Shown piece after piece: positions 5,262-39,385 of a stretch of DNA of 64,000 bases (position 1 is its first letter; every line of letters begins with the position of its first letter). The position numbers and the translations under genes are program-made. Under the pieces are notes generated by a model, which saw nothing but the letters and a program-made list of their open reading frames with translations, made no database searches and was not told where the DNA came from. Source of the stretch: Vitis vinifera (Eukaryota > Streptophyta > Magnoliopsida > Vitales > Vitaceae); assembly GCF_030704535.1 (NCBI RefSeq), contig NC_081812.1, forward strand, positions 17,741,501 to 17,805,500, read 5' to 3'.

Positions 5262-6608
5262 TCATTTTTTTAGGTCAAACTCCACATAATAATCCACGTG
5301 CTGATAATTCCCCAGAATAATAGACGGTCCCGGAGTGAATTCCAAGGTGCTGGTGCCTGCATCAGTGACGACAGGGAAACAAGCCAAGCTTATCTCAGGA
5401 ATAAACACAAAATAATTCTTTCCTGGCACCACCATATTTGCGCCACCTCTAAATTGGTAAATTAAGTCGGGGATTTTTATGGATTTGTGGCCTGTGAAAT
5501 TATAACAAGGTGTGAAACCGGACAGGGTTTCTAGCTCAAGAGATCTCCTATACTTGGACATCTGCTTTTTCAACTCATTTGTCACTATCTTAAAAACCGG
5601 TCCTGTCATGTATCCGTACGCGAAACCAGAATCTATCATGAGACCACCTCGGCCGTCAGATACTGGAGCCAGATACTTGCTTGGAATCCCGAGGAGCGTG
5701 TTCCCGATCTTGATATCTTCGACACCCAAGTAGTAGTAAATCGGGAAGTCAGGAGGGTTCTTGAGAAAGGGAGTATAGGAAAGTCCTTTGGTTTCGCCAT
5801 CACTGTAGTCCAAAATCAACTTGCTGCTGTTCCGGGTGTCATCGTAATCGTGCGAATTGAGACAGTAAGCAAACTTCTTCACACCCATCTGCATTGGCAA
5901 CGAGAACATTGTGCGACCGAACCCCGCAAGTGCGTCAGAAGTAGGTACACGAGCAGCGGATGTTGTACACCCAACAAGAAATTTATGAATGGTTTTCCCG
6001 GGAAAGTTGAGGTTTTCTAATAGAAAAAACCCAAATGCTGCTCCTGTGCCATACTGAAGAGTGTATTGTGGGCAAGCGTGGGAGCATTTTTTGGAATTGC
6101 CATTGCAGCGGGGGCACCCGAGGTAAACATCTGGGGAGGAAGTGTTTGCACATTTGGGATCTCTGCACCCCAAGATCTTATCAGATGACGAAAGTTCGGG
6201 ATTGAAGATAGGGACCTTTTTGGGGTTTGAAAAAGAACAGTTAGTGCATGTGTAGTGAGTTGTGCACGGGGCCCATACTACATGACTTCCTGTGTCCACC
6301 AGGAAGGAGAGTTTTTGTGGAGGAGTGCCGAAGCTGAGAGGGATGGTGTGACCCCCATAACTATGAGGAAAAAGAGAGGCTTTTACGAGAGGACTGGTCG
6401 TACCATGTTTCAAGTGATGGGCTCTGGACAAGGATGCAGAGGCAAGGTGTTGGAGAAAGACCCTGGGTTCCGTGGATAGTTTGCTTGTAAATGTTGAGGT
6501 TAGAGGGATGGTAATGGTGGCAGGTATGTTATCATTGGAGGAGGATGCCAAGAAAAGGATAGAGAAGAGAGTAAAAACAGGGAAAAGCAAAGAAGTAGAA
6601 GAAGCCAT
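5262..6608 (-). CDS. nepenthesin-like aspartic protease AP1, C-terminally frameshifted
   Basis: Single-exon A1-family (pepsin-like) plant aspartic protease, 448 residues, closest in type to Arabidopsis At4g16563 as I recall that family. Residues 1-24 are a hydrophobic signal peptide, so the product should be secreted. The first catalytic motif is D105-TGS, the flap Tyr is Y186, and nine cysteines of the plant-specific insert lie between 115 and 179 with the same spacing as AP4. The second motif is D326-SG followed by Phe (DSGF), where the family normally has Ser or Thr. The frame ends at DLKK-stop. An A7 run at about 5262-5268, where AP2 has C plus A5, adds one base, so the last 11 codons (ending FRxQTC) fall out of frame. 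The enzyme is probably folded but impaired. ATG 6608 is supported by AP2 and AP4. Confidence 0.85.
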   Translation of the reverse strand: MASSTSLLFPVFTLFSILFLASSSNDNIPATITIPLTSTFTSKLSTEPRVFLQHLASASLSRAHHLKHGTTSPLVKASLFPHSYGGHTIPLSFGTPPQKLSFLVDTGSHVVWAPCTTHYTCTNCSFSNPKKVPIFNPELSSSDKILGCRDPKCANTSSPDVYLGCPRCNGNSKKCSHACPQYTLQYGTGAAFGFFLLENLNFPGKTIHKFLVGCTTSAARVPTSDALAGFGRTMFSLPMQMGVKKFAYCLNSHDYDDTRNSSKLILDYSDGETKGLSYTPFLKNPPDFPIYYYLGVEDIKIGNTLLGIPSKYLAPVSDGRGGLMIDSGFAYGYMTGPVFKIVTNELKKQMSKYRRSLELETLSGFTPCYNFTGHKSIKIPDLIYQFRGGANMVVPGKNYFVFIPEISLACFPVVTDAGTSTLEFTPGPSIILGNYQHVDYYVEFDLKK

Positions 6609-15156: not shown

Positions 15157-15775
15157 TGCACGCACCTTCGTAATCCACGGAATAATGGATGGTTCCGGGG
15201 TGAATTCCAAAACGTTGTGGCATCAGCGATGATTGGGAAAGAAGCGACTGGGAGCTGGGAGACAAAATAATTCTTTCCCGGCACCACCATATGTGCTCGA
15301 TCCGCTGCTAAATTGGTAAGTTAAGTCCAGGATTTTTATGGAGTTCTCGCTCGTAAAGTTGTAACAGAGTGTCAAACCGGTGGCAGCTTCGAGTTCAATA
15401 ACTCTTTTATACTTGGACATCTGCTTCTTCAACTCAGCTGCCACAATATTAAAAACCGTTCTTGTCATGTATCCTAAGCCTGAGTCTATTATGAGCTCAC
15501 CTCTCCGGTCGGATCCCGGAGCCAGATACTTTCGTGGAATCCTCAGGAGTTTGTCGCCGGTCATGGTATCTTTGACACCTATGTAGTAATAAATTAACAG
15601 GAAAGTCATCTGGGTTCTTGAGAAAGGGAGCTTAGCTAAGTCCTTTGGTTTCCCCATCAGGGTAATCCAAAATCAATTCGCCGTGAGAATTGAGACAGTA
15701 AGCGAACTTCTTCACACCCATCTACACCGACGAGCAATGAGAATAGTATGCGACTGAATCCCGCAAGTGCCGTTG
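15157..15775 (-). pseudogene. aspartic protease relic (psi-AP-b)
   Basis: Minus-strand remnant of the C-terminal half of an AP gene. It runs from the 'KFAYCLNSH'-like segment (about 15690-15715), through 'GV-KDT', 'RIPRKYLAPGSD', a second catalytic region IIDSGLGYM and 'VAAELKKQMSKYK', to 'TGLTLCYNFT' and a damaged C-terminus near 15160. The longest open piece is 144 codons (15223-15657). The signal peptide and the first catalytic Asp are absent. After DSG it has Leu, again not Ser or Thr. It is a longer version of psi-AP-a with the same neighbours and is non-functional. Confidence 0.85.
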
Positions 15776-16560
15776 TTGTACGAAGTATGTGGATGATATA
15801 ATTCTCCATAACGATGATAATACAATTCCTATGATGTCCATCTATTGATCATGCATGTAATTCTATTGTTATTTAATAATATAATAATATTACATCATAT
15901 ATTTTTATATATGTATAGACGTAAGCAAAGTATATGCATTACCGAACCGTTCCTCTTATCATTTTGTAATTAAATGAGTGTCAACATTCTCACATCCATT
16001 ATTTTTGTTCTTGAGCATCTCATAAAACATCATTGTCGGGTATTGTATGACCAGAATTTAATGCATAATATTTCAAAAAAAAAAATTAATTTTTTTTATA
16101 TTAATTATTTGTCATGATTTAAAAGAAAAGGCCCAATTGGAAGCACGGGTACGTAATCAATATTTTTACCCATTTTTATAGGATCTATGTGACTAATCAA
16201 TTTTCTTCATAAAAAAAACAAGCATAAAAAATCTTGTTAATTTTAGATAAAATTATGCCCCATACAACTATCAACCTAATAAATCCATAAATCAATTTAT
16301 ATCACATACAATTCATTCCTTTCTATTAATGCAGATTGGATAATAATAACTACTATGACATTTGAAAGGGCTAAAAGTTTGATTCACCTCGATAAAAAAG
16401 GACTTTAAAATTGAACCTCCTTCGAGCAGTTCATGGAAAATTCCACACTTGAAAAAGTTTGCATAAAAAAAAAAAAAAAAGTTACTGCAAGCATGAGAAA
16501 AGCCATAAATCATAATCCCAAGGCATATCAAGTTGCCATCCTGCTGACAATGAAAAAGGA
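15776..16560. other. flank of psi-AP-b, partly shared with block I
   Basis: About 15912-16330 matches 1429-1830 and a short part about 3755-3800. No gene is seen. From about 16370 the sequence has no partner in block I. Confidence 0.55.
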
Positions 16561-19030: not shown

Positions 19031-20249
19031 CTAGCAAGTCTGTCGTCGGAACCCAAGACGCTCATTTTTGAGGTCATACTCCACATAATAATCCACATGC
19101 TGAGAATTCCCCAGAATAATAGACGGTCCCGGAGTGAATTCCATAGTGTTGTTGCCTGCATCAGTGACCATGGGTAAACAAGCCACGAGGCTTGTCTCAA
19201 GCCTAGACATTAATAAATAATTCATTCCTGCGACCACCATATTTGCGCCACCTCTAAATTGGTAAATTAAGGGGGGGATTTTTATGGATTTGTGGCCTGT
19301 GAAATTAAAACAAGGCGTGAGACCGGACTGGGTTTCTGCCTCGAGAGATCTCCTATACTTGGACATCTGCTTTTTCAGTTCATTTGTCACTATCTTAAAA
19401 ACCGGTCGTGTCATGTATCCGTACGCGAAACCAGAATCTATCATGAGACCACCTCGGCCGTCAGATCCTGGAGCCAGATACTTGCTTGGAATCCTGAGGA
19501 GCTTGTTTCCGATCTTGATATCTTTGACACCCAAGTAGTAGTAAAACGGGAAGTCAGGAGGGTTCTTGAGAAAGGGAGTGTAGAAAAGTCCTTTGGTTTT
19601 GCCATCACTGTAGTCCAAAACCAACTTGCCGCTGTTCCGGGTGTCATCGTAGTAGTGAGAATTGAGACAGTAAGCAAACTTCTTCACACCCATCTGCATC
19701 GGCAACGAGAACATTGTGCGACCGAACCCCGCAAATCCGTCAGAAGTAGGTAGACGAGCAGCGGATGTTGTACACCCAACAAGAAATGTATGAATTGTTT
19801 TCGCGGGAAAATTGAGGTTTTCTAATAGAAAATATCCAGATGATGCTCCTCCGCCATACTGAAGACGGTACCGTGGGCAAGCGTGAGAGCAATTTTTGGA
19901 ATTGCCATTGCAGCGGGGGCACCCAAGGTGAACATCTGGGGAAGAAGTGTTTACACATTTGGGATTTCTGCACCCCAGGATCTTAGAAGACGACGAAAGT
20001 TCGGGATTGAAAATTGGGGCTTTTTTGGGGCCGGCATCTGAAAAAGAACAGTTGGTGCATGTATAGTGAGTTGTACAAAGAGTCCATACTACATGACTTC
20101 CTGTGTCCACCAGGAAGGAGAGTTTTTGTGGAGGAGTGCCGAAGCTGAGAGGGATGGTGTGACCCCCATAACTATGAGGAAAAAGAGAGGTTTTTACGAG
20201 AGGGTTGGTCTTACCATGTTTCAAGTGATGGACTCTAGACAAGGATGCA

Positions 20250-20254
20250 GAGGC
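20250..20254. repeat. target site duplication GAGGC, left
   Basis: Five-base direct repeat next to the first base of the left LTR. It matches 24987-24991 on the other side and occurs once in AP1. Confidence 0.95.
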
Positions 20255-20520
20255 TGAAAGTTTTAGAAACTGGGTTTCAGAAACTGGGAAAAACCAATAT
20301 TTCTCATTGTCTATTAAGAAAAGATGATGAGTATTTTTACACTGACGTTTTCTTATATTTATATCTACAACAACCTAACTAACTAACTTCCTTCTTCAAG
20401 ACGTTCTTAACCGGCTTCTGTTTGTTGCAGCTGACCTCAGTTTGTTGCACCTGATCTCGGTTTGTTGCAGCTGACCCCGGACAGTTACTTTCTTGTTGAT
20501 CAGCTAGGTATCTTCTATCA
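20255..20520 (-). repeat. 3' LTR of the copia element
   Basis: 266 bp, matching 24721-24986 at all but one position. In element orientation it starts TGATAGAAG and ends CTTTCA. The gag-pol frame runs into it and stops at 20379-20381. Confidence 0.95.
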
Positions 20521-23500
20521 TCCCCCCGCAAGCTCACAGGGGAGGGAACAACAGATAGCTTCGTTCTGAAACTAAGGAACTGGGAGCTTGAAATATGTTT
20601 AGTGAAAATGTCAGCAACCTGTTCAGCGGAAGGAAGATACTGAATGACGAGCTGTTTACGAAGAACATGATCCCGTATAAAGTGAAGATCCATTTCAATG
20701 TGTTTGGTCCTAGCATGGAACACGGGATTTGCAGCCAAGTGAGCTGCACTTTTATTATCACACCAAAGTAGAGGTGGAGAGGAGGAAGAGAGACAAAGTT
20801 CTTGTAGAACATATTGAATCCAAATCATCTCTGAAGTAGCAGACGCAAGAGCACGATACTCAGATTCTGCACTGCTGCGAGACACAACCTTTTGTTTGTT
20901 GGAAGACCATGACACTAAATTCGGACCAAGGAAGATGCCATAGCCACCGGTGCTTCTTCTGTCATCTGGACAAGATGCCCAGTCGGCATCAGTATAGCCA
21001 TGAATATCCAACGAGGTGGACTGCTGCATCTGAATGCCATAGGATAAAGTGCCTTTGAGATATCGTAAAATCCGTTTCACAGCAAGCCAATGAGTAGTAG
21101 TGGGTGTAGCCATGAATTGACAAGCCTTATTAACAGCAAAAGAAATGTCTGGTCTGGTAAGGGTAAGATACTGAAGCGCACCAACCGTGCTGCGATATAA
21201 GGTGGCATCCGAGAAAGGTTCACCATCCAGATGAGATAATGTTTGTCCTAACAGTCCCGGAGTAGTAGCAGGCTTGGAGTCTAACATGGCTGTGCGAGAT
21301 AAGAGGTCTTGTGTGTACTTGTGCTGACTGAGATGAAACATAGTACCAGAACTAACTACTTCTATGCCCAGAAAATAATTGACATAGCCCAGGTCACGAA
21401 GAGCAAAAGAATAATTCAGCCGAGTAATAAATGAGGAAACTTGAGCTGAACTGCTGCCAGTTACTAGTATGTCGTCTACATAAATGAGTAAAATAAGGAC
21501 ATCATGTGTTGAATGATGAATGAACATCGAACTGTCAGCTCGAGAAGCTTGAAATCCCCAGCCAAGAAGTGAAGTGCTGAGTTTGTTATACCATGCCCGG
21601 GGGGCCTGCTTAAGGCCATATAAAGCCTTGTTAAGCTTGCAAACATGAGAAGGATATTGAGAATTGATAAAGCCCGGGGGTTGTTGCATAAACACATGCT
21701 CTTCAAGATCTCCATGGAGAAAGGCATTCTGAACATCAAGTTGGTGAACTGACCAGTTAAATGAGAGTGCAACTGCAAGTATAATGCGGATAGTAGAAGC
21801 CTTGACAACTGGACTAAAAGTCTCAAAATAATCGAGACCCAGAGTTTGAGTAAATCCTTGTGCAACTAACCGGGCCTTATAGCGATCAACTGTTCCATCG
21901 GGTTTATATTTGAGTTTGTAGACCCATTTACAACCAATTATATTGCCATTGGAGGGTGGTGGAACTAGATGCCACGTGTTGTTTCTTTGGAGAGCAGAAA
22001 ACTCTTTTTCCATGGCAAGAACCCAATTTGAATCTTTAACAGCCTGTGTGAATGTAGTAGGTTCAGAGATGTGAGATGAGAAGTAGACCTTCTTCTTGCT
22101 GATGCCATTCTTTGCACGTGTGACCATGGGATGCTGATTAGTAGGGTGAGGTTCAGAAGTGGAGATGTCAGCAAAAGGAACTTGTATCAGGTCTGGTAAA
22201 GAAATAGTGGAGGAAGGCATATTAGTTAACGGTGGGCTTGAGGTGGAAGGAGTTGTATGAGAACGTAGTGAGGACACGGGAGGAGATGAGCAAGGAAGAA
22301 AGGCTGGAGTGGGGATAGTAACTACAGATGAGGATTGATCCGGAGTAGACTGAAATGGGAATACCGTTTCATGAAACACAACATGCCTAGTAACATAGAG
22401 ACGGCCTGTCAAGGGGTTAAGACACATATAGCCTTTGTGATTGGAACTATAGCCAAGGAAAACGCATTGACTGGAGCGATAGGAGAGTTTATTTTTGTTG
22501 TATGGTCGAATATAAGGGTAGCATAAGCAACCGAAAATTTTAAAGATGTGATAATTTGGTGATTTGCCAAAAAGAATTTGAAAGGGAGATTGATAATTGA
22601 GAACCTTAGTAGGTAGCCGATTTATAAGGAAAATAGTTGTATGAAATGCATATAGCCAAAACTTGAAAGGTAAGGATGCAGTGGCTAATAGAGCAAGACC
22701 AGTTTCAATTATATGTCGTAATTTGCGCTCCGCTCGACCATTCTGTTCAGGTGTGTATGGACAAGAAAACTGACTTTTAATACCATGCGTAGCAAGATAT
22801 GAAGAGAAGGCTTTAAATTCACCACCATTATCAGACCGTAAACATTGTATCCGAGAATTAAACTGATTTTCAACTAGACTTTTGAACTTTATGAATACAG
22901 ATAATGCTTGATCTTTGCTGTGCAATGGATAAATCCAAGAGAAACGAGAGAAATCATCAACAAACAAAATGAAGTAGCGTGCACCAGTTGTGGACGGAAT
23001 GGAAGCAGGGCCCCAAAGATCAGCATGAAGTAAAGCTAAAGGATGAGAAGCTCTAGAAACAGACACATTGAAAGGCAATTTATGACTTTTTGCAAATTGA
23101 CAAGCACAACAGACATTGTTTTTATGGCATTGATGTGAAATATTACAAGAGGTAAGAATGTGTTTCAAGATATTATCAGCAGGGTGTCCAAGCCGAGAAT
23201 GCCAAAGTGTAGTTGTGGTTGTTAAAGAAAGATTGGAAGACCTGTCATAACTGGAAGAAACAAAAGCTGCAGGTGAAGGCACAAATCTGGCAGGGAATCT
23301 ATATAAGCCATGTTCAAGACTTCCTTGAAGAAGTATCTTCTTGGTGACCTGATCCTTGACAAAAAAGAATCGAGGATGAAACTCAAAGAAAGTATTATTA
23401 TCGGCACAAAACTGTGAGACACTAATGAGATTAGTAGCAATATCAGGAACGTGAAGTACTTGTCTCAGTTGAAAGGTTTTAGAAGAGGAAGGAAAGAAAG

Positions 23501-24629
23501 TAGTGCCTGTATGTAAAATACGAAGGTGCTTACCATTCCCAACAATCACCTTGTCATTACCCATGTATGGCTGTACATCTGAGAGTGGATCAATACTTTG
23601 TGATAGGTGATGTGTAGCACCAGTGTCAAAAAACCATGCCTCATCAGATATAGTGGAAGGAGATGCCATCATAGCTTGTACTTGATTCTTGGCATTTGGT
23701 TTATTGGTTTGAACGGTGTCCATATTAGGGTTGTAGCCTTGGAAGTTAATATCAAACCTATGGTAGCAGCGAACGACGGTGTGCCCAAACTTGCCACAAA
23801 GCTGGCACTGTGGTCGATGCTGAGATGATTGTGAGCGCCCACCATTTGTACCTCTTCTTGTGTTGAACCCAGACTGCCTATTTTGACCAGAGGATCTTTT
23901 ATTGTTAAAATGTTGATATTGTGGTGTAGCAAGATTAGCAGAGATGACGTTATCTTCTGCAACTGAATTCTGAAAGCTAAGTCGTTGTTCATGGGTGAGT
24001 AAAATGCTGTGTACAGAGTGGAGAGACATCTCATCTTCACGTGCTGTAAGAGAGGCTACTATGGAGTTGTAGTCTGCCCCAAGACCTCCAAGAAGTTGGA
24101 GGATTTGATCTCTATCAGTCACAGGTTCTCCAATGGCCGCCAAATTATCGGCCAAACTCTTTAGTTTAAGAATGTATTCCATCATTGTCAATGAACCTTT
24201 CCTTGTGGTTTGGAACTCTAGGCGTAGTTGCATCACCCTAGCCCTTGAAGAAGCCGAAAAGATTCGTTCTAAAGCAAACCAGGCTGCATGAGAGGATTGA
24301 TAGCCAACTATCTGGCCCATGATTTCAGGAGTGAGTGAGGAGTAGATCCAGCTAAGGATCATGCGATCGAATCGTCGCCACATAACAAAATCTGGGTTTG
24401 TTTCTCCAGAACTTGTTTTCTGAGGTGGACAAATTTTCAGACCTTCAATATGATCTTCAAAACCATTGGCAAAGACAACGTTCTCCATTTGTGTTCTCCA
24501 AAGAATGTAATTGTTTCTATCAAGTTTGATCGGCAGTGCATGATTCAGCATCTGCATTGTTTGAGTAGCACCGGTAGATGAAGGTAGGGTACCAGCTTGT
24601 AACCCTGATGACTGTGTTGAACTCATCAT
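20379..24629 (-). CDS. gag-pol polyprotein of the copia element
   Basis: An intact 1416-residue polyprotein that drives element replication. Gag (about 25-220) is followed by a CCHC zinc knuckle (C275, C278, H283, C288). The aspartic protease has D335 in FFDTGATHH. The integrase has an HHCC region (about 477-510) and catalytic D537, D600 and E634. The reverse transcriptase (about 875-1110) has YVDD at 1050-1053. RNase H acidic residues are about D1214, E1255 and D1291. No stop or frameshift interrupts it. The last residues are unusual: the frame crosses the purine tract and ends inside the 3' LTR, adding about 46 residues encoded by the LTR. The start ATG lies 91 bases inside the 5' LTR border. 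Confidence 0.95.
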   Translation of the reverse strand: MMSSTQSSGLQAGTLPSSTGATQTMQMLNHALPIKLDRNNYILWRTQMENVVFANGFEDHIEGLKICPPQKTSSGETNPDFVMWRRFDRMILSWIYSSLTPEIMGQIVGYQSSHAAWFALERIFSASSRARVMQLRLEFQTTRKGSLTMMEYILKLKSLADNLAAIGEPVTDRDQILQLLGGLGADYNSIVASLTAREDEMSLHSVHSILLTHEQRLSFQNSVAEDNVISANLATPQYQHFNNKRSSGQNRQSGFNTRRGTNGGRSQSSQHRPQCQLCGKFGHTVVRCYHRFDINFQGYNPNMDTVQTNKPNAKNQVQAMMASPSTISDEAWFFDTGATHHLSQSIDPLSDVQPYMGNDKVIVGNGKHLRILHTGTTFFPSSSKTFQLRQVLHVPDIATNLISVSQFCADNNTFFEFHPRFFFVKDQVTKKILLQGSLEHGLYRFPARFVPSPAAFVSSSYDRSSNLSLTTTTTLWHSRLGHPADNILKHILTSCNISHQCHKNNVCCACQFAKSHKLPFNVSVSRASHPLALLHADLWGPASIPSTTGARYFILFVDDFSRFSWIYPLHSKDQALSVFIKFKSLVENQFNSRIQCLRSDNGGEFKAFSSYLATHGIKSQFSCPYTPEQNGRAERKLRHIIETGLALLATASLPFKFWLYAFHTTIFLINRLPTKVLNYQSPFQILFGKSPNYHIFKIFGCLCYPYIRPYNKNKLSYRSSQCVFLGYSSNHKGYMCLNPLTGRLYVTRHVVFHETVFPFQSTPDQSSSVVTIPTPAFLPCSSPPVSSLRSHTTPSTSSPPLTNMPSSTISLPDLIQVPFADISTSEPHPTNQHPMVTRAKNGISKKKVYFSSHISEPTTFTQAVKDSNWVLAMEKEFSALQRNNTWHLVPPPSNGNIIGCKWVYKLKYKPDGTVDRYKARLVAQGFTQTLGLDYFETFSPVVKASTIRIILAVALSFNWSVHQLDVQNAFLHGDLEEHVFMQQPPGFINSQYPSHVCKLNKALYGLKQAPRAWYNKLSTSLLGWGFQASRADSSMFIHHSTHDVLILLIYVDDILVTGSSSAQVSSFITRLNYSFALRDLGYVNYFLGIEVVSSGTMFHLSQHKYTQDLLSRTAMLDSKPATTPGLLGQTLSHLDGEPFSDATLYRSTVGALQYLTLTRPDISFAVNKACQFMATPTTTHWLAVKRILRYLKGTLSYGIQMQQSTSLDIHGYTDADWASCPDDRRSTGGYGIFLGPNLVSWSSNKQKVVSRSSAESEYRALASATSEMIWIQYVLQELCLSSSSPPLLWCDNKSAAHLAANPVFHARTKHIEMDLHFIRDHVLRKQLVIQYLPSAEQVADIFTKHISSSQFLSFRTKLSVVPSPVSLRGDDRRYLADQQESNCPGSAATNRDQVQQTEVSCNKQKPVKNVLKKEVS
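20521..20531 (-). other. polypurine tract
   Basis: In element orientation the bases just before the 3' LTR read TTGCGGGGGGA, a purine tract that primes plus-strand synthesis in this class. It lies inside the open gag-pol frame. Confidence 0.85.
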
Positions 24630-24708
24630 GAATAGAATAGAGGTTATCTACAAAGAACTAAAACTGATATGAAGAAGAAGAAGTCTTGTAAAAAAAAAAA
24701 ATACCAAA

Positions 24709-24720
24709 GCTCTGATACCA
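24709..24720 (-). other. primer-binding site (initiator tRNA-Met)
   Basis: In element orientation the bases directly after the 5' LTR are TGGTATCAGAGC. This is the standard plant copia primer site, complementary to the 3' end of initiator methionine tRNA. Confidence 0.95.
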
Positions 24721-24986
24721 TGAAAGTTTTAGAAACTGGGTTTCAGAAACTGGGAAAAACCAATATTTCTCATTGTCTATTAAGAAAAGATGATGAGTAT
24801 TTTTACACTGACGTTTTCTTATATTTATATCTACAATAACCTAACTAACTAACTTCCTTCTTCAAGACGTTCTTAACCGGCTTCTGTTTGTTGCAGCTGA
24901 CCTCAGTTTGTTGCACCTGATCTCGGTTTGTTGCAGCTGACCCCGGACAGTTACTTTCTTGTTGATCAGCTAGGTATCTTCTATCA
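24721..24986 (-). repeat. 5' LTR of the copia element
   Basis: 266 bp, one difference from the 3' LTR. It should hold the element promoter. Because it is transcribed in the same direction as AP2, the AP2 promoter reads straight into it. Confidence 0.95.
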
Positions 24987-25156
24987 GAGGCAAGGTGTTG
25001 GAGAAAGACCATGGGTTCCGTGGATAGTTTGCTTGTAAATGTTGAGGTTAGAGGGATGGTAATGGTGGCAGGTATGTTATCTTCGGAGGAGGATGCAAAG
25101 AAAAGGATAGAGAAAACGGTGAAGACAGAGAAAAGCAAAGAAGTAGAAGAAGCCAT
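24845..25156 (-). CDS. chimeric frame: AP2 signal peptide joined to LTR-coded tail
   Basis: The AP2 start region (57 codons, including the signal peptide) continues in frame into the 5' LTR for another 46 codons and stops at 24845. The LTR part has the same sequence as the last 46 residues of the element's own gag-pol frame (DRRYLADQQ to LKKEVS). A transcript from the AP2 promoter could therefore give a 103-residue secretable peptide. Whether it is expressed or stable cannot be seen, and it may simply be a by-product of the insertion. Confidence 0.4.
   Translation of the reverse strand: MASSTSLLFSVFTVFSILFFASSSEDNIPATITIPLTSTFTSKLSTEPMVFLQHLASDRRYLADQQESNCPGSAATNRDQVQQTEVSCNKQKPVKNVLKKEVS
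24987..24991. repeat. target site duplication GAGGC, right
   Basis: Matches 20250-20254 directly after the last LTR base. Confidence 0.95.
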
Positions 25157-35636: not shown

Positions 35637-36989
35637 CTAGCAAGTCTGTCGTCGGAAGCCAAAACGATCATTTTTGAGGTCATACTCCACATAATAATCC
35701 ACATGCTGAGAATTCCCCAGAATAATAGATGGATCCGGAGTGATTTCCAAAGCGTTGGTGCCATTAGTGTCCATGAGGAAACAAGCCAAGCTTTCCTGAG
35801 GACTTATCCCAAAATAATTCTTTCCTGGCACCACCATATTTGCGCCACCTCTAAATTGGTAAATTAAAGGGGGGATTTTTATGGATTTGTGGCCTGTGAA
35901 ATTATAACAAGGTGTGAGACCGGTCTGGGTTTCTGCCTCGAGAGATCTCCTGTACTTGGACATCTGCTTTTTCAACTCATTTGTCACTATCTTAAAAACT
36001 GGTCCTGTCATGTATCCGGCGCCACCGTAACCAGAATCTATTATGACACCACTTCTGCCGTCAGATCCTGGAGCCAGATACTTGCTTGGAATCCTCAGGA
36101 GCTTGTTGCCGATCTTGATATCTTTGACACCCAAGTGGTAATAAAACGCCGAGGCAGGAGGGCTCTTGAGAAAGGGAGTGTAGCTAAGTCCTTTGGTTTT
36201 GCCATCGCGGTAGTCCAAAATCAACTTGCCGCTGTTCCGGGTGTCATCATAGTCGTGAGAATTGAGACAGTAAGCAAACTTCTTCACACCCATCTGTATC
36301 GGCAACGAGAACATTGAGCGACCGAACCCCGCAAGTGCGTCAGAAGATAATTCACGAGCAGCGGATGTTGTACACCCAAGAAGAAAATTACGAATTGTTT
36401 TCCGGGGAAATTTCAGGTTTTCTAATAGAAAATACCCGGATGATGCTCCTGTGCCATACTGAGTACTGTATGGACAAGCGTACGAGCAATGTTTGGAATT
36501 ACCATTGCAGCGGGGGCACCCAAGGTGAACATATGGGAAATAAGTGCTTACACATTTGGGGTTTCTGCAGTCTAAGATCTTAGAAGACGACGAAAGTTTG
36601 GGATCGAAGATGGGGACCTTTTTGGGGTCGGCAGCTGAAAAAGAACAGTTGGTGCATGTATAGTCAGTTGTACACGGGGCCCATACTACATCACTTCCTG
36701 TGTCCACCAGGAAGGAGAGTTTTTGTGGAGGAGTGCCGAAGCTGAGAGAGATGGAGTGACCCCCATAACTATGAGGAAAAAGAGAGGTTTTCACCGGAGG
36801 GTTGGTCTTACCATGTTTCAAGTGATGGGCTCTGGACAAGGATGCAGAGGCAAGGGGTTTGCTTGTAAATGTTGAGGTTAGAGGGATGGTAATGGTGGCA
36901 GGTATGTTATCTTTGGAGCAGGATGCCAAGAAAAGGATAGAGAAGAGAATAAAGACGGAGAAAAGCAAAGAAGAAGAAGAAGAAGCCAT
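35637..36989 (-). CDS. nepenthesin-like aspartic protease AP3, intact
   Basis: Single-exon A1-family protease, 450 residues. The start is set at ATG 36989 (MASSSSSLLF), since AP1, AP2 and AP4 begin alike. The frame stays open 37 codons further upstream, but that part lies in the leader and crosses the TATA box. Residues 1-24 are a signal peptide. The first catalytic motif is D96-TGSD, and the insert cysteines are conserved (from C105 on). The second motif is D318-SG followed by Tyr, in a glycine-rich DSGYGGAGYM in place of the normal DSG-S/T. Ten residues are missing from the propeptide compared with AP1 ('TSKPLASAS'). The C-terminus is complete (FGFRRQTC). It is probably secreted. Activity is uncertain because of the changed second motif. 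Confidence 0.88.
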   Translation of the reverse strand: MASSSSSLLFSVFILFSILFLASCSKDNIPATITIPLTSTFTSKPLASASLSRAHHLKHGKTNPPVKTSLFPHSYGGHSISLSFGTPPQKLSFLVDTGSDVVWAPCTTDYTCTNCSFSAADPKKVPIFDPKLSSSSKILDCRNPKCVSTYFPYVHLGCPRCNGNSKHCSYACPYSTQYGTGASSGYFLLENLKFPRKTIRNFLLGCTTSAARELSSDALAGFGRSMFSLPIQMGVKKFAYCLNSHDYDDTRNSGKLILDYRDGKTKGLSYTPFLKSPPASAFYYHLGVKDIKIGNKLLRIPSKYLAPGSDGRSGVIIDSGYGGAGYMTGPVFKIVTNELKKQMSKYRRSLEAETQTGLTPCYNFTGHKSIKIPPLIYQFRGGANMVVPGKNYFGISPQESLACFLMDTNGTNALEITPDPSIILGNSQHVDYYVEYDLKNDRFGFRRQTC

Positions 36990-37041
36990 AACTGTGTGTC
37001 TCAGAAGCGCACACCAGTGAAAGTGGTAGAGAGAGTACTCG

Positions 37042-37052
37042 TTTATATATAG
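37042..37052 (-). promoter_or_regulatory. TATA box of AP3
   Basis: The minus strand reads CTATATATAAA about 55 bases before the AP3 ATG, aligned with the TATA boxes of AP1 and AP2. Confidence 0.6.
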
Positions 37053-37059
37053 ACAGTGA

Positions 37060-39385
37060 CATGCGTTGTCGGCAAAATTTAAATTCCGTGGGCAAATCAA
37101 AGCGCAGAGAAACAGTAAATGGTTTTTTTTTTTTTTTTTAATAAAAGATTGTTGAAGAGATTGTTCGAAAAATAAATTCTAAATTATGTCACGTTTAATT
37201 TTACCTTACTCTACCTGTTTTACTTTAATGCTAAATTGAGGAGTTCACGTTTTATATTAAACTCCACTTTTTAAAGAAAGAATTTACTTTTTATATTAAA
37301 AGTTTTAAAATTGACTTTATCTTCTCAAAAAATGAGTTTGATGTGATTTTTAAAAATATTTTTTATAAACTATTTTAAAACTTTTTTAAGATATTATTAT
37401 AATTATTCAAAAGCCTAACAAATGAAGTGACACTACTTAGCATTAAATTGTTTATGCTTGAAATGGAAGCTCACCCAAGTCCACCCCTAAAATTTCAAGG
37501 ACAGGATTAAGGAAGGCATAGGAGTCTTCAATTCTCATTTTGGTTTCTGCTTTCAATCCTTTTTTGGTTTTTATTTATTTATTTTAATAGTTCTAAATTG
37601 GCCCTTATTCTGTTTTTTCAATACTTAGATGTGAGGGTTTAATATCCTACTCCACCGTTTCCTTGTGATCTCAAATATACTTTTATCGATAAAACCATGA
37701 AATGCATTTGATTGACCACAGATTCTATTGTCTCTTCCTTGTGGAGACAAACATGCTTACTTACAAAAATATATGTGGCATGGACCCATGTGAATGTCAT
37801 CACCATCGAAATGTCTTATTCCTTTGGTTTGTTTCTTTTTTTTTTTTACTTTTTGTTCTGTTTCTTCATTTCCTCCTTTCAAACGTCATGTTTTGAATCT
37901 GTGGGTCATGTATTGTGTGTGTGGGGACCACAACTACAAATAATGTGGTTTACCGCTATTTTTGTGTCTAGGTATGTTTCTCTTTTTGATGAAACTCTAG
38001 GGTACTGAGTTAGCTCCTCTCTAACCTTTAGAGTTAGATTTAGAAAAAAAGTTATACAAGGAAAATAAAATATAATATAAATATTAAGAAAGTGATAAAT
38101 TTGTAATGGATGATTTTTAATTTTTTTTAGTTTTAATTGTATTTTTAAATTTTTTTATGGCAACTAAAGAAAACTTTGTTCAATTTTAATTAAAAGAGAT
38201 AAAAGGATGAAATGTTTTAATAAGAAATGTTGGATTATGTTTGCATCTTTGTATTGTTCACACCAAGCCTCTTGTGGGGGTACCTTATGCTGATGAGTGC
38301 CTATGGTTTGTCGGATAAAATACCATGAACAAGATAAGGTGACAAGTGAGATTAAGGAATATGTCAATATAAGTGGAATGATGTGATGAATTTAGGCAAA
38401 GGCTTTGATGATGGCTCAAGGATGTCATGAGTTTAGTCATGCAAGTACATGTAAGGCACCACGTGGGTGGCTCAACTCATAAAAAAATAAAGTATGAAAT
38501 TTTTAGGAGCTAATATGTTTTTTCAAAAAGGATAACTTGAGAAAGGGTTTCTATTTCTCAAATTTTAAAAAATTCATTATGTCTAGTGAAGCACCTATGA
38601 CATCTTCACTTAGCGCATTAAAAATAGCTTAAAATGCTCTTTAGAAAGGTAGTGATAGGGGCACAAGTTATGCGACACCAAGAGCATAATATGAGGGTCT
38701 CGGGCATGAGAAATGTGTGATGGTGAGTCTTATTAGCATGCCCACGTGCATGAGTGTAATGTCATGAGTGTGGTGCAACATGTGGGTGTATGTAAATGAC
38801 ATAGGGTGTGGCTATTGTACACGTTATAAGCTTTGCATGCCTTGGATTGAAAAATCTAACAATGTTGACACGCAAGGACAATAATGCAATGGACATGGGT
38901 CACAAGCTAAAAAGAGAGCTTTCACACCAAGAATATTACACAAATATGTAGGCTAAGAAAAGGCTTAGCACACATAAGCTTCCTACACACATCAGTAGGT
39001 TAGATGACCTCATGGGCTCAACCAAACATAACACTTGCATTAAGGAAAACCCAAGCAAGGGGTAACAATAAGGCATAACACATGGAGACACAAGGTTAGA
39101 TTAAAGGAACAATGATATGAAATGCGTACAAATAAGTCCGAAAGCAACATGACAACTAAATGAGCTATTGAGCTTATGAATAAATGGTAAGATCATAAGC
39201 TAGCAATGCATGTATCAAGACAAATGACAAATGACTAAAACCTTTGAAATAGTCCACAAAATGGGTGGAATAGTTGAAGCATTTGACTTCAAATTTGAAG
39301 GAGTCTACTTCCTATATAAGAGGGAGTTGGTTGACTGATTTCTATCAAGTGGGTAAGGTTTGAATGCCTATAAATACTTAATATT
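37060..39385. repeat. upstream flank of AP3, duplicate of the AP2 flank
   Basis: Block III partner of 25217-27680, as described there. It ends near 'aatgcctataaatacttaatattttc', the same point at which the block II copy loses similarity. No convincing gene is seen. Confidence 0.8.

What the first reader, a model, noticed from the sequence alone, without database searches (positions are those of the whole stretch)
20255..24986. Very young, apparently complete copia element inside a protease gene
The two 266-bp LTRs differ at one base, the target duplication is exact, the primer site and purine tract are intact, and the 1416-codon gag-pol frame has no stop. AP1 and the AP2 flanks show the unfilled site. 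The element could still be mobile, and the AP2 knock-out may be absent in some cultivars or on the other haplotype.
Basis: partly seen in the sequence, partly recalled or inferred. Interest (0 to 1): 0.75.

Follow-up and report, generated by a model that had tools for sequence, protein, structure and literature searches.

The report
Young retrotransposon interrupting a grapevine gene
A structurally complete jumping gene of a known kind landed recently in a grapevine protease-like gene and cut it in two; the copy it came from was not found in the searched genome assembly.

Summary
A Ty1/copia LTR retrotransposon (20255-24986, minus strand) has 266-bp LTRs that differ at 1 site, an exact GAGGC target duplication, primer-binding and polypurine sites, and one 1416-codon frame without a stop with gag, protease, integrase, RT and RNase H signatures. 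It splits a TAXi/aspartyl-protease-like gene within codon 57; 6 of 6 paralogues aligned lack the insertion.

It is really young, not merely homogenised. Six sibling insertions decay at near-neutral ratios (219 nonsynonymous: 83 synonymous private changes, 71% C>T/G>A) and carry stops; this copy's private changes are 12:16 with 36% C>T/G>A (with outgroups). Its source line therefore stayed functional until shortly before insertion, roughly 0.15-0.3 My ago, with wide limits.

No possible source was found in the assembly: best other LTR 94% identical, RT 97%, gag 98%. The family is small; its LTR start matches none of the copia families of PMC2576258. Current mobility and polymorphism among cultivars could not be tested. 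This is a new member of a well-known kind.

The parts
20250..20254 (.). target-site duplication GAGGC, copy 1
20255..20520 (-). 3' LTR (266 bp)
20521..20529 (-). polypurine tract GCGGGGGGA beside the 3' LTR
   Evidence: sequence; role inferred from position
20379..24629 (-). single gag-pol frame, 1416 codons, no stop
   Evidence: examined in four pieces
23970..24392 (-). gag (Retrotran_gag_2, PF14223)
   Evidence: E 1.3e-20; a CCHC knuckle follows at codons 275-288 (recalled motif)
23616..23633 (-). aspartic protease motif DTGA (codons 333-338 with the two residues before it)
   Evidence: recalled motif
23085..23309 (-). gag_pre-integrs domain (PF13976)
   Evidence: E 2.7e-11
22749..23048 (-). 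integrase core (rve, PF00665) with a D-D-35-E candidate that starts here and ends just downstream
   Evidence: E 6.6e-14; (recalled motif)
21390..21983 (-). reverse transcriptase (RVT_2, PF07727); YVDD at 21471-21482; the low end given is the piece boundary, the domain runs somewhat further
24709..24720 (-). primer-binding site TGGTATCAGAGC
   Evidence: the same start is reported for grape Noble elements in PMC2576258
24721..24986 (-). 5' LTR (266 bp); carries the one derived base
24987..24991 (.). target-site duplication GAGGC, copy 2
24987..25156 (-). 5' part of the interrupted host gene (AP2): 170 nt from its ATG at 25156, that is 56 codons and two bases, one target copy included
19031..20254 (-). 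3' part of the interrupted host gene (AP2): TAXi_N/TAXi_C, aspartyl-protease-like (starts with the other target copy)
5262..6608 (-). AP1, closest paralogue in the window (86% protein identity), empty site
35637..37100 (-). AP3 paralogue (79% protein identity), empty site

Best explanation
A structurally complete, autonomous-type Ty1/copia LTR retrotransposon of a small grapevine family was copied from a still functional source element and integrated once into the coding exon of an aspartyl-protease-like gene (AP2), in the same transcriptional direction, duplicating 5 bp (anatomy shown by sequence). The insertion cuts the AP2 frame to a 103-codon ORF that ends inside the 5' LTR (shown), so AP2 is presumably null in this genome (inferred). 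Insertion was recent, about 0.15-0.3 My ago with wide limits (inferred from one LTR difference). No copy near 100% identity was found elsewhere in this assembly, so the source is polymorphic, lost, or present only in other grape lineages (inferred). Whether the copy is expressed or can still move is unknown.
For: LTR pair, TSD, PBS, PPT and ORF; domains in copia order. Empty site in 6 of 6 paralogues aligned. LTR K2P 0.0038 against 0.024-0.080 in the 5 siblings with both LTRs. Stops: 0 in 1416 codons here, 2-10 in each of 7 related copies over the codons covered. Private coding changes N:S 12:16 here against 219:83 in 6 siblings, C>T/G>A 10 of 28 against 214 of 302, Fisher p 0.002 and 0.0004; with an outgroup requirement 9:11 against 138:42 and 5 of 20 against 114 of 180, p 0.006 and 0.001. 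No near-identical copy found in the genome.
Against: One LTR difference gives a wide age range (0.007-1.6 My at 6.5e-9 per site per year). The genome search scores only the best candidates (40 of 469 for RT, 40 of 163 for gag; 26 of 26 for the LTR), so a missing source is well supported but not absolute. The outgroup test drops 8 window and 122 sibling sites, and the siblings are not fully independent of each other. Against the stop rate of the least decayed sibling, a stop-free frame here has P 0.09. RNase H is recognised only by motif, not by Pfam.
Confidence: 0.9

Rival explanations
1. The insertion is as old as most of its siblings (K2P 0.024-0.036, about 2-3 My at 6.5e-9) and gene conversion between its two LTRs has erased their differences, giving a falsely young age.
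For: In RT the window copy is as far from the siblings (35-51 differences over about 1000 bp) as they are from each other (34-58), leaving out C18a.
Against: Conversion of LTRs would not protect the interior, yet it has no stops and a selected change pattern poor in C>T/G>A, unlike the 6 siblings. AP2 shows no second lesion; this is weak, since under an assumed 15% disabling share P is 0.07 at 2 My.
Confidence: 0.05
2. A source copy exists in this genome but was missed because the assembly is collapsed or incomplete, or because the search did not score it.
For: The search scores only best candidates (40 of 469; 40 of 163); the assembly's identity is inferred.
Against: Three separate pieces (LTR, RT, gag) each return the window copy first and then nothing above 94%, 97% and 98%; 26 of 26 LTR candidates were scored. 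If this is PN_T2T, it is described as gap-free (PMC10199708, passages).
Confidence: 0.1
3. AP2 remains functional because the element is spliced out as an intron or the gene restarts downstream.
For: Element and gene share orientation; the 3' part of the frame is fully open.
Against: The 5' frame ends in the LTR after 103 codons. The first in-frame ATG in the 3' part lies well downstream of the DTGS motif, so a restarted product would lack it. Splicing was not tested.
Confidence: 0.05

Closest known systems
Plant Ty1/copia (Pseudoviridae-type) LTR retrotransposons
   Same: Short TG...CA LTRs, 5-bp target duplication, PBS TGGTATCAGAGC, single gag-pol frame, order gag-PR-INT-RT-RNase H.
   Different: Nothing clearly outside the normal range. 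The frame runs 142 nt into the 3' LTR; in 4 of 7 related copies a stop lies within that overlap.
The 13 grape LTR families of Moisy et al. 2008 (Cremant, Edel, Noble, Gentil, Huben and others, plus Tvv1, Vine-1, Gret1; PMC2576258: outline, parts 1-3 of 6 and passages seen)
   Same: Size (ten canonical elements 4,086-5,519 bp, LTRs 147-502 bp), PBS start, recent insertions, some intact frames of 1,298-1,486 residues.
   Different: LTR starts TGAT; the paper gives TGTT, TGTG or TAAC for its ten copia families and TGTT for Tvv1 and Vine-1; Gret1 is Ty3/gypsy. About 8 close and 13 recognisable copies here against 91-212 per family there, by a different search. Sequences were not compared directly.
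Vine-1 in the grape Adhr gene, Tnt1 in tobacco nitrate reductase, Gret1 at VvMybA1 (named in PMC2576258)
   Same: Retrotransposon insertion in or at a host gene.
   Different: Different element and gene; I know of no phenotype here.

Membership tests
Ty1/copia LTR retrotransposon | Two near-identical LTRs with TG...CA ends and a short target-site duplication | tested here: met
Ty1/copia LTR retrotransposon | tRNA primer-binding site after the 5' LTR and purine tract before the 3' LTR | tested here: met
   by the recalled initiator-Met motif and by PMC2576258, not by an alignment to a tRNA of this genome
Ty1/copia LTR retrotransposon | Integrase upstream of reverse transcriptase; copia-type gag and RVT_2 | tested here: met
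   (four pieces)
Ty1/copia LTR retrotransposon | RNase H downstream of RT | tested here: inconclusive
   No Pfam match for the last piece beyond the end of RVT_2; copia-like DADWA, AESEY and DNKSA motifs are present (recalled motifs)
One of the copia families of PMC2576258 | LTR beginning TGTT, TGTG or TAAC | tested here: not met
   LTR begins TGAT (for the paper)
Autonomous, currently mobile element | Transcription and new insertions | not testable with these tools
   No RNA or population data
Repbase Vitis Copia families | Sequence match to a named entry | not testable with these tools
   Repbase is not among the tools

The most novel reading that the evidence does not exclude
The window copy is the only trace, in this reference, of a low-copy copia lineage that kept functional genes for about as long as its siblings have been decaying and that still lives elsewhere in the grape gene pool (other cultivars, wild grapes or a donor species). 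The AP2 knock-out would then be a segregating null allele that tags a lineage.
Probability: 0.4. Interest if true: 0.5.

Novelty: new member of a known kind. Interest (0 to 1): 0.3.

Why it matters
Recent LTR insertions inside coding exons make natural knock-outs and possible cultivar markers. The interesting part here is the contrast inside one small family: six insertions decaying by near-neutral, C>T-rich change beside one young insertion whose separate history shows selection on gag-pol, with no source found in the assembly. That makes a simple question testable in grape pangenomes: where does a low-copy element keep its functional source? The effect on the plant is probably modest, because AP2 sits in a tandem cluster with five near-full-length close paralogues.

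Tried and rejected
LTR gene conversion as a cause of false youth: disfavoured by the interior's selection and mutation pattern. C18a as an independent insertion: dropped, since it shares the 12-bp left flank and a 3' LTR at K2P 0.004 with C18b and differs at 6 of 985 sites in RT, i.e. a segmental duplicate. AP2 dN/dS as an age test: no power, because the AP cluster evolves fast (pairwise w 0.53-0.77 among the five close copies). Search of solved structures with the RT piece: no match at E 0.01. Matching AP2 to VvAP22-VvAP24 of the 2013 grape AP survey (PMC3751884, passages): the cluster location fits chromosome 8, but gene-by-gene assignment could not be fixed. A published name for this family or a report of this insertion: the paper searches listed 25 of 84, 12 of 92, 15 of 62, 15 of 87 and 8 of 9 papers; no title or abstract start shown names it. 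Passages of PMC9097378 (Copia-3 and Copia-23 as the most recent families in Pinot noir) and PMC10501149 (TE insertion polymorphism near 61% of collinear genic regions in five grape genomes) were seen and do not name it either. This is not a claim that it is unpublished.

Full report
What is there. The two direct repeats at 20255-20520 and 24721-24986 are 266 bp each and differ at one site, a transition. They begin and end TG...CA and are flanked by an exact GAGGC duplication. On the element strand (minus) the 5' LTR is followed directly by TGGTATCAGAGC, and the 3' LTR is preceded by GCGGGGGGA. A frame of 1416 codons runs from 24629 to 20379 without a stop. Examined in four pieces, it gives Retrotran_gag_2, Pol_BBD, gag_pre-integrs, rve, SH3_retrovirus and RVT_2 in copia order, with a gag CCHC knuckle, DTGA, an integrase HHCC and D-D-35-E candidate, YVDD and RNase H-like motifs (motifs recalled). 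Pfam does not recognise the RNase H part. The frame overlaps the first 142 nt of the 3' LTR; in 4 of 7 related copies a stop lies in that overlap, so its last codons may be dispensable (inference; those copies are decayed elsewhere too).

The host gene. The flanks read, with one GAGGC, as one 462-residue frame with TAXi_N, TAXi_C and Asp matches in the 3' part; the solved structures matched are EDGP and xylanase inhibitors (4 sequences at E 1e-5). The element sits 170 nt into the coding sequence, within codon 57, in the gene's own direction. Read from its ATG, the gene now ends in the 5' LTR after 103 codons. A genome search with the 3' part gives 12 matches, 11 of them (AP2 included) on contig C8 between about 17.696 and 17.778 Mb. 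In 6 of 6 paralogues aligned across the junction there is no insertion. AP1, AP3 and AP4 in the window are 86, 79 and 50% identical to AP2 at the protein level.

Which genome. The assembly has 495,616,077 bases in 21 contigs. A PDB thaumatin-like chain (4jru; that it is from Vitis is recalled, the tool names no organism) is encoded at 100% over 201 of 201 residues on contig C2. PMC10199708 describes a 494.87-Mb, 19-chromosome, gap-free PN40024 assembly, 99.8% homozygous (passages). PMC3751884 places a tandem AP cluster (VvAP22-24) on grape chromosome 8 (passages). I infer Vitis vinifera, probably PN40024. By their descriptions the tools held no second plant genome, so no other accession was searched.

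The family. LTR searches return 28 matches (26 of 26 candidates scored): the window's two LTRs, then 94% and lower; 14 places reach 89% or more. An RT piece returns 43 matches, the best other at 97% (40 of 469 candidates scored). A gag piece returns 41, the best other at 98% (40 of 163 scored). I used seven related copies (C15, C4, C6, C18b, C18a, C2, C18c) and, as outgroups, C16, two on C13 and one on C14; the more distant matches were not analysed further. C18a is a segmental duplicate of C18b. Five siblings have both LTRs: K2P 0.024 to 0.080; three of these five have exact target duplications. LTRs of this family begin TGAT, unlike the copia families of PMC2576258. Repbase could not be consulted, so 'undescribed family' is not claimed.

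Is it really young? One difference in 266 gives 0.29 My at 6.5e-9 (95% limits 0.007-1.6) or 0.145 My at 1.3e-8 (0.004-0.81). PMC2576258 used 6.5e-9; 1.3e-8 is a recalled alternative. If it had the LTR divergence of any of the five siblings, one or no difference would have P 0.013 or less. The stronger evidence is inside. All 7 related copies carry 2-10 stops in the codons covered; pooled over the six independent ones, 34 in 7163 codons, this predicts 6.7 in 1416 and none are seen (P 0.001; at the lowest sibling rate P 0.09). Over 1124 codons with at least 5 of 7 rows, private changes are 12 nonsynonymous and 16 synonymous in the window copy against 219 and 83 in six siblings; the ratio expected without selection is about 2.8-3.4. 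C>T/G>A makes up 10 of 28 against 214 of 302. Requiring the covered outgroups to agree drops 8 window and 122 sibling sites and leaves 9:11 against 138:42, and 5 of 20 against 114 of 180. The siblings have thus decayed in place, in the manner of methylated, silenced DNA (inference), while the window copy's line was selected for function until shortly before it inserted. LTR gene conversion does not explain this.

The missing source. Leaving out C18a, the window copy and the siblings are about equally far apart in RT (35-51 differences over about 1000 bp, against 34-58 between siblings), a star-like pattern. The source had therefore run separately for about as long as the siblings have been in place, yet no such copy was found in the assembly. 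Loss, or survival on haplotypes that this plant did not inherit, is the natural reading; introgression is possible. None of these could be tested here.

Verdict. Ordinary in kind, well documented in detail: a young, complete-looking copia insertion that breaks one member of a tandem protease-like cluster. Mobility and polymorphism remain open.

Noticed in passing
G000 C8:17695954-17786972 (window 1141-45472 is its right part): A tandem cluster of AP-like genes and fragments, those found all on the minus strand, with fast protein evolution (pairwise w 0.53-0.77 among five close copies). In AP1 and AP2 the second catalytic-type motif reads DSGF and in AP3 DSGY, against DSGS in AP4; loss of protease activity was not tested.
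   Followed up: partly
window 5262-6608: AP1's frame ends about ten residues before the C-terminus shared by AP2 and AP3.
   Followed up: no
window 15181-15785 and 1141-1426: Degraded AP-like fragments in several frames.
   Followed up: no
L006 and L005 (G000 C18 near 21.063 and 21.459 Mb): Two element copies share their left flank and have near-identical LTR and RT: a segmental duplication about 0.4 Mb apart.
   Followed up: partly
L003 1506-1776 and L004 1501-1757 (G000 C15): One copy's two LTRs differ by a 14-bp duplication near the LTR end; the window LTR, 9 bp longer than most siblings' 257 bp, looks similar there, suggesting slippage or recombination between copies.
   Followed up: no
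seven related copies (loci in L003-L022): Some in-frame stops recur at the same codons in copies at different loci, and 36 of 38 fall at Q, R or W codons of the window frame, mostly fitting C>T/G>A: hotspot deamination or spread of defective copies in trans.
   Followed up: partly
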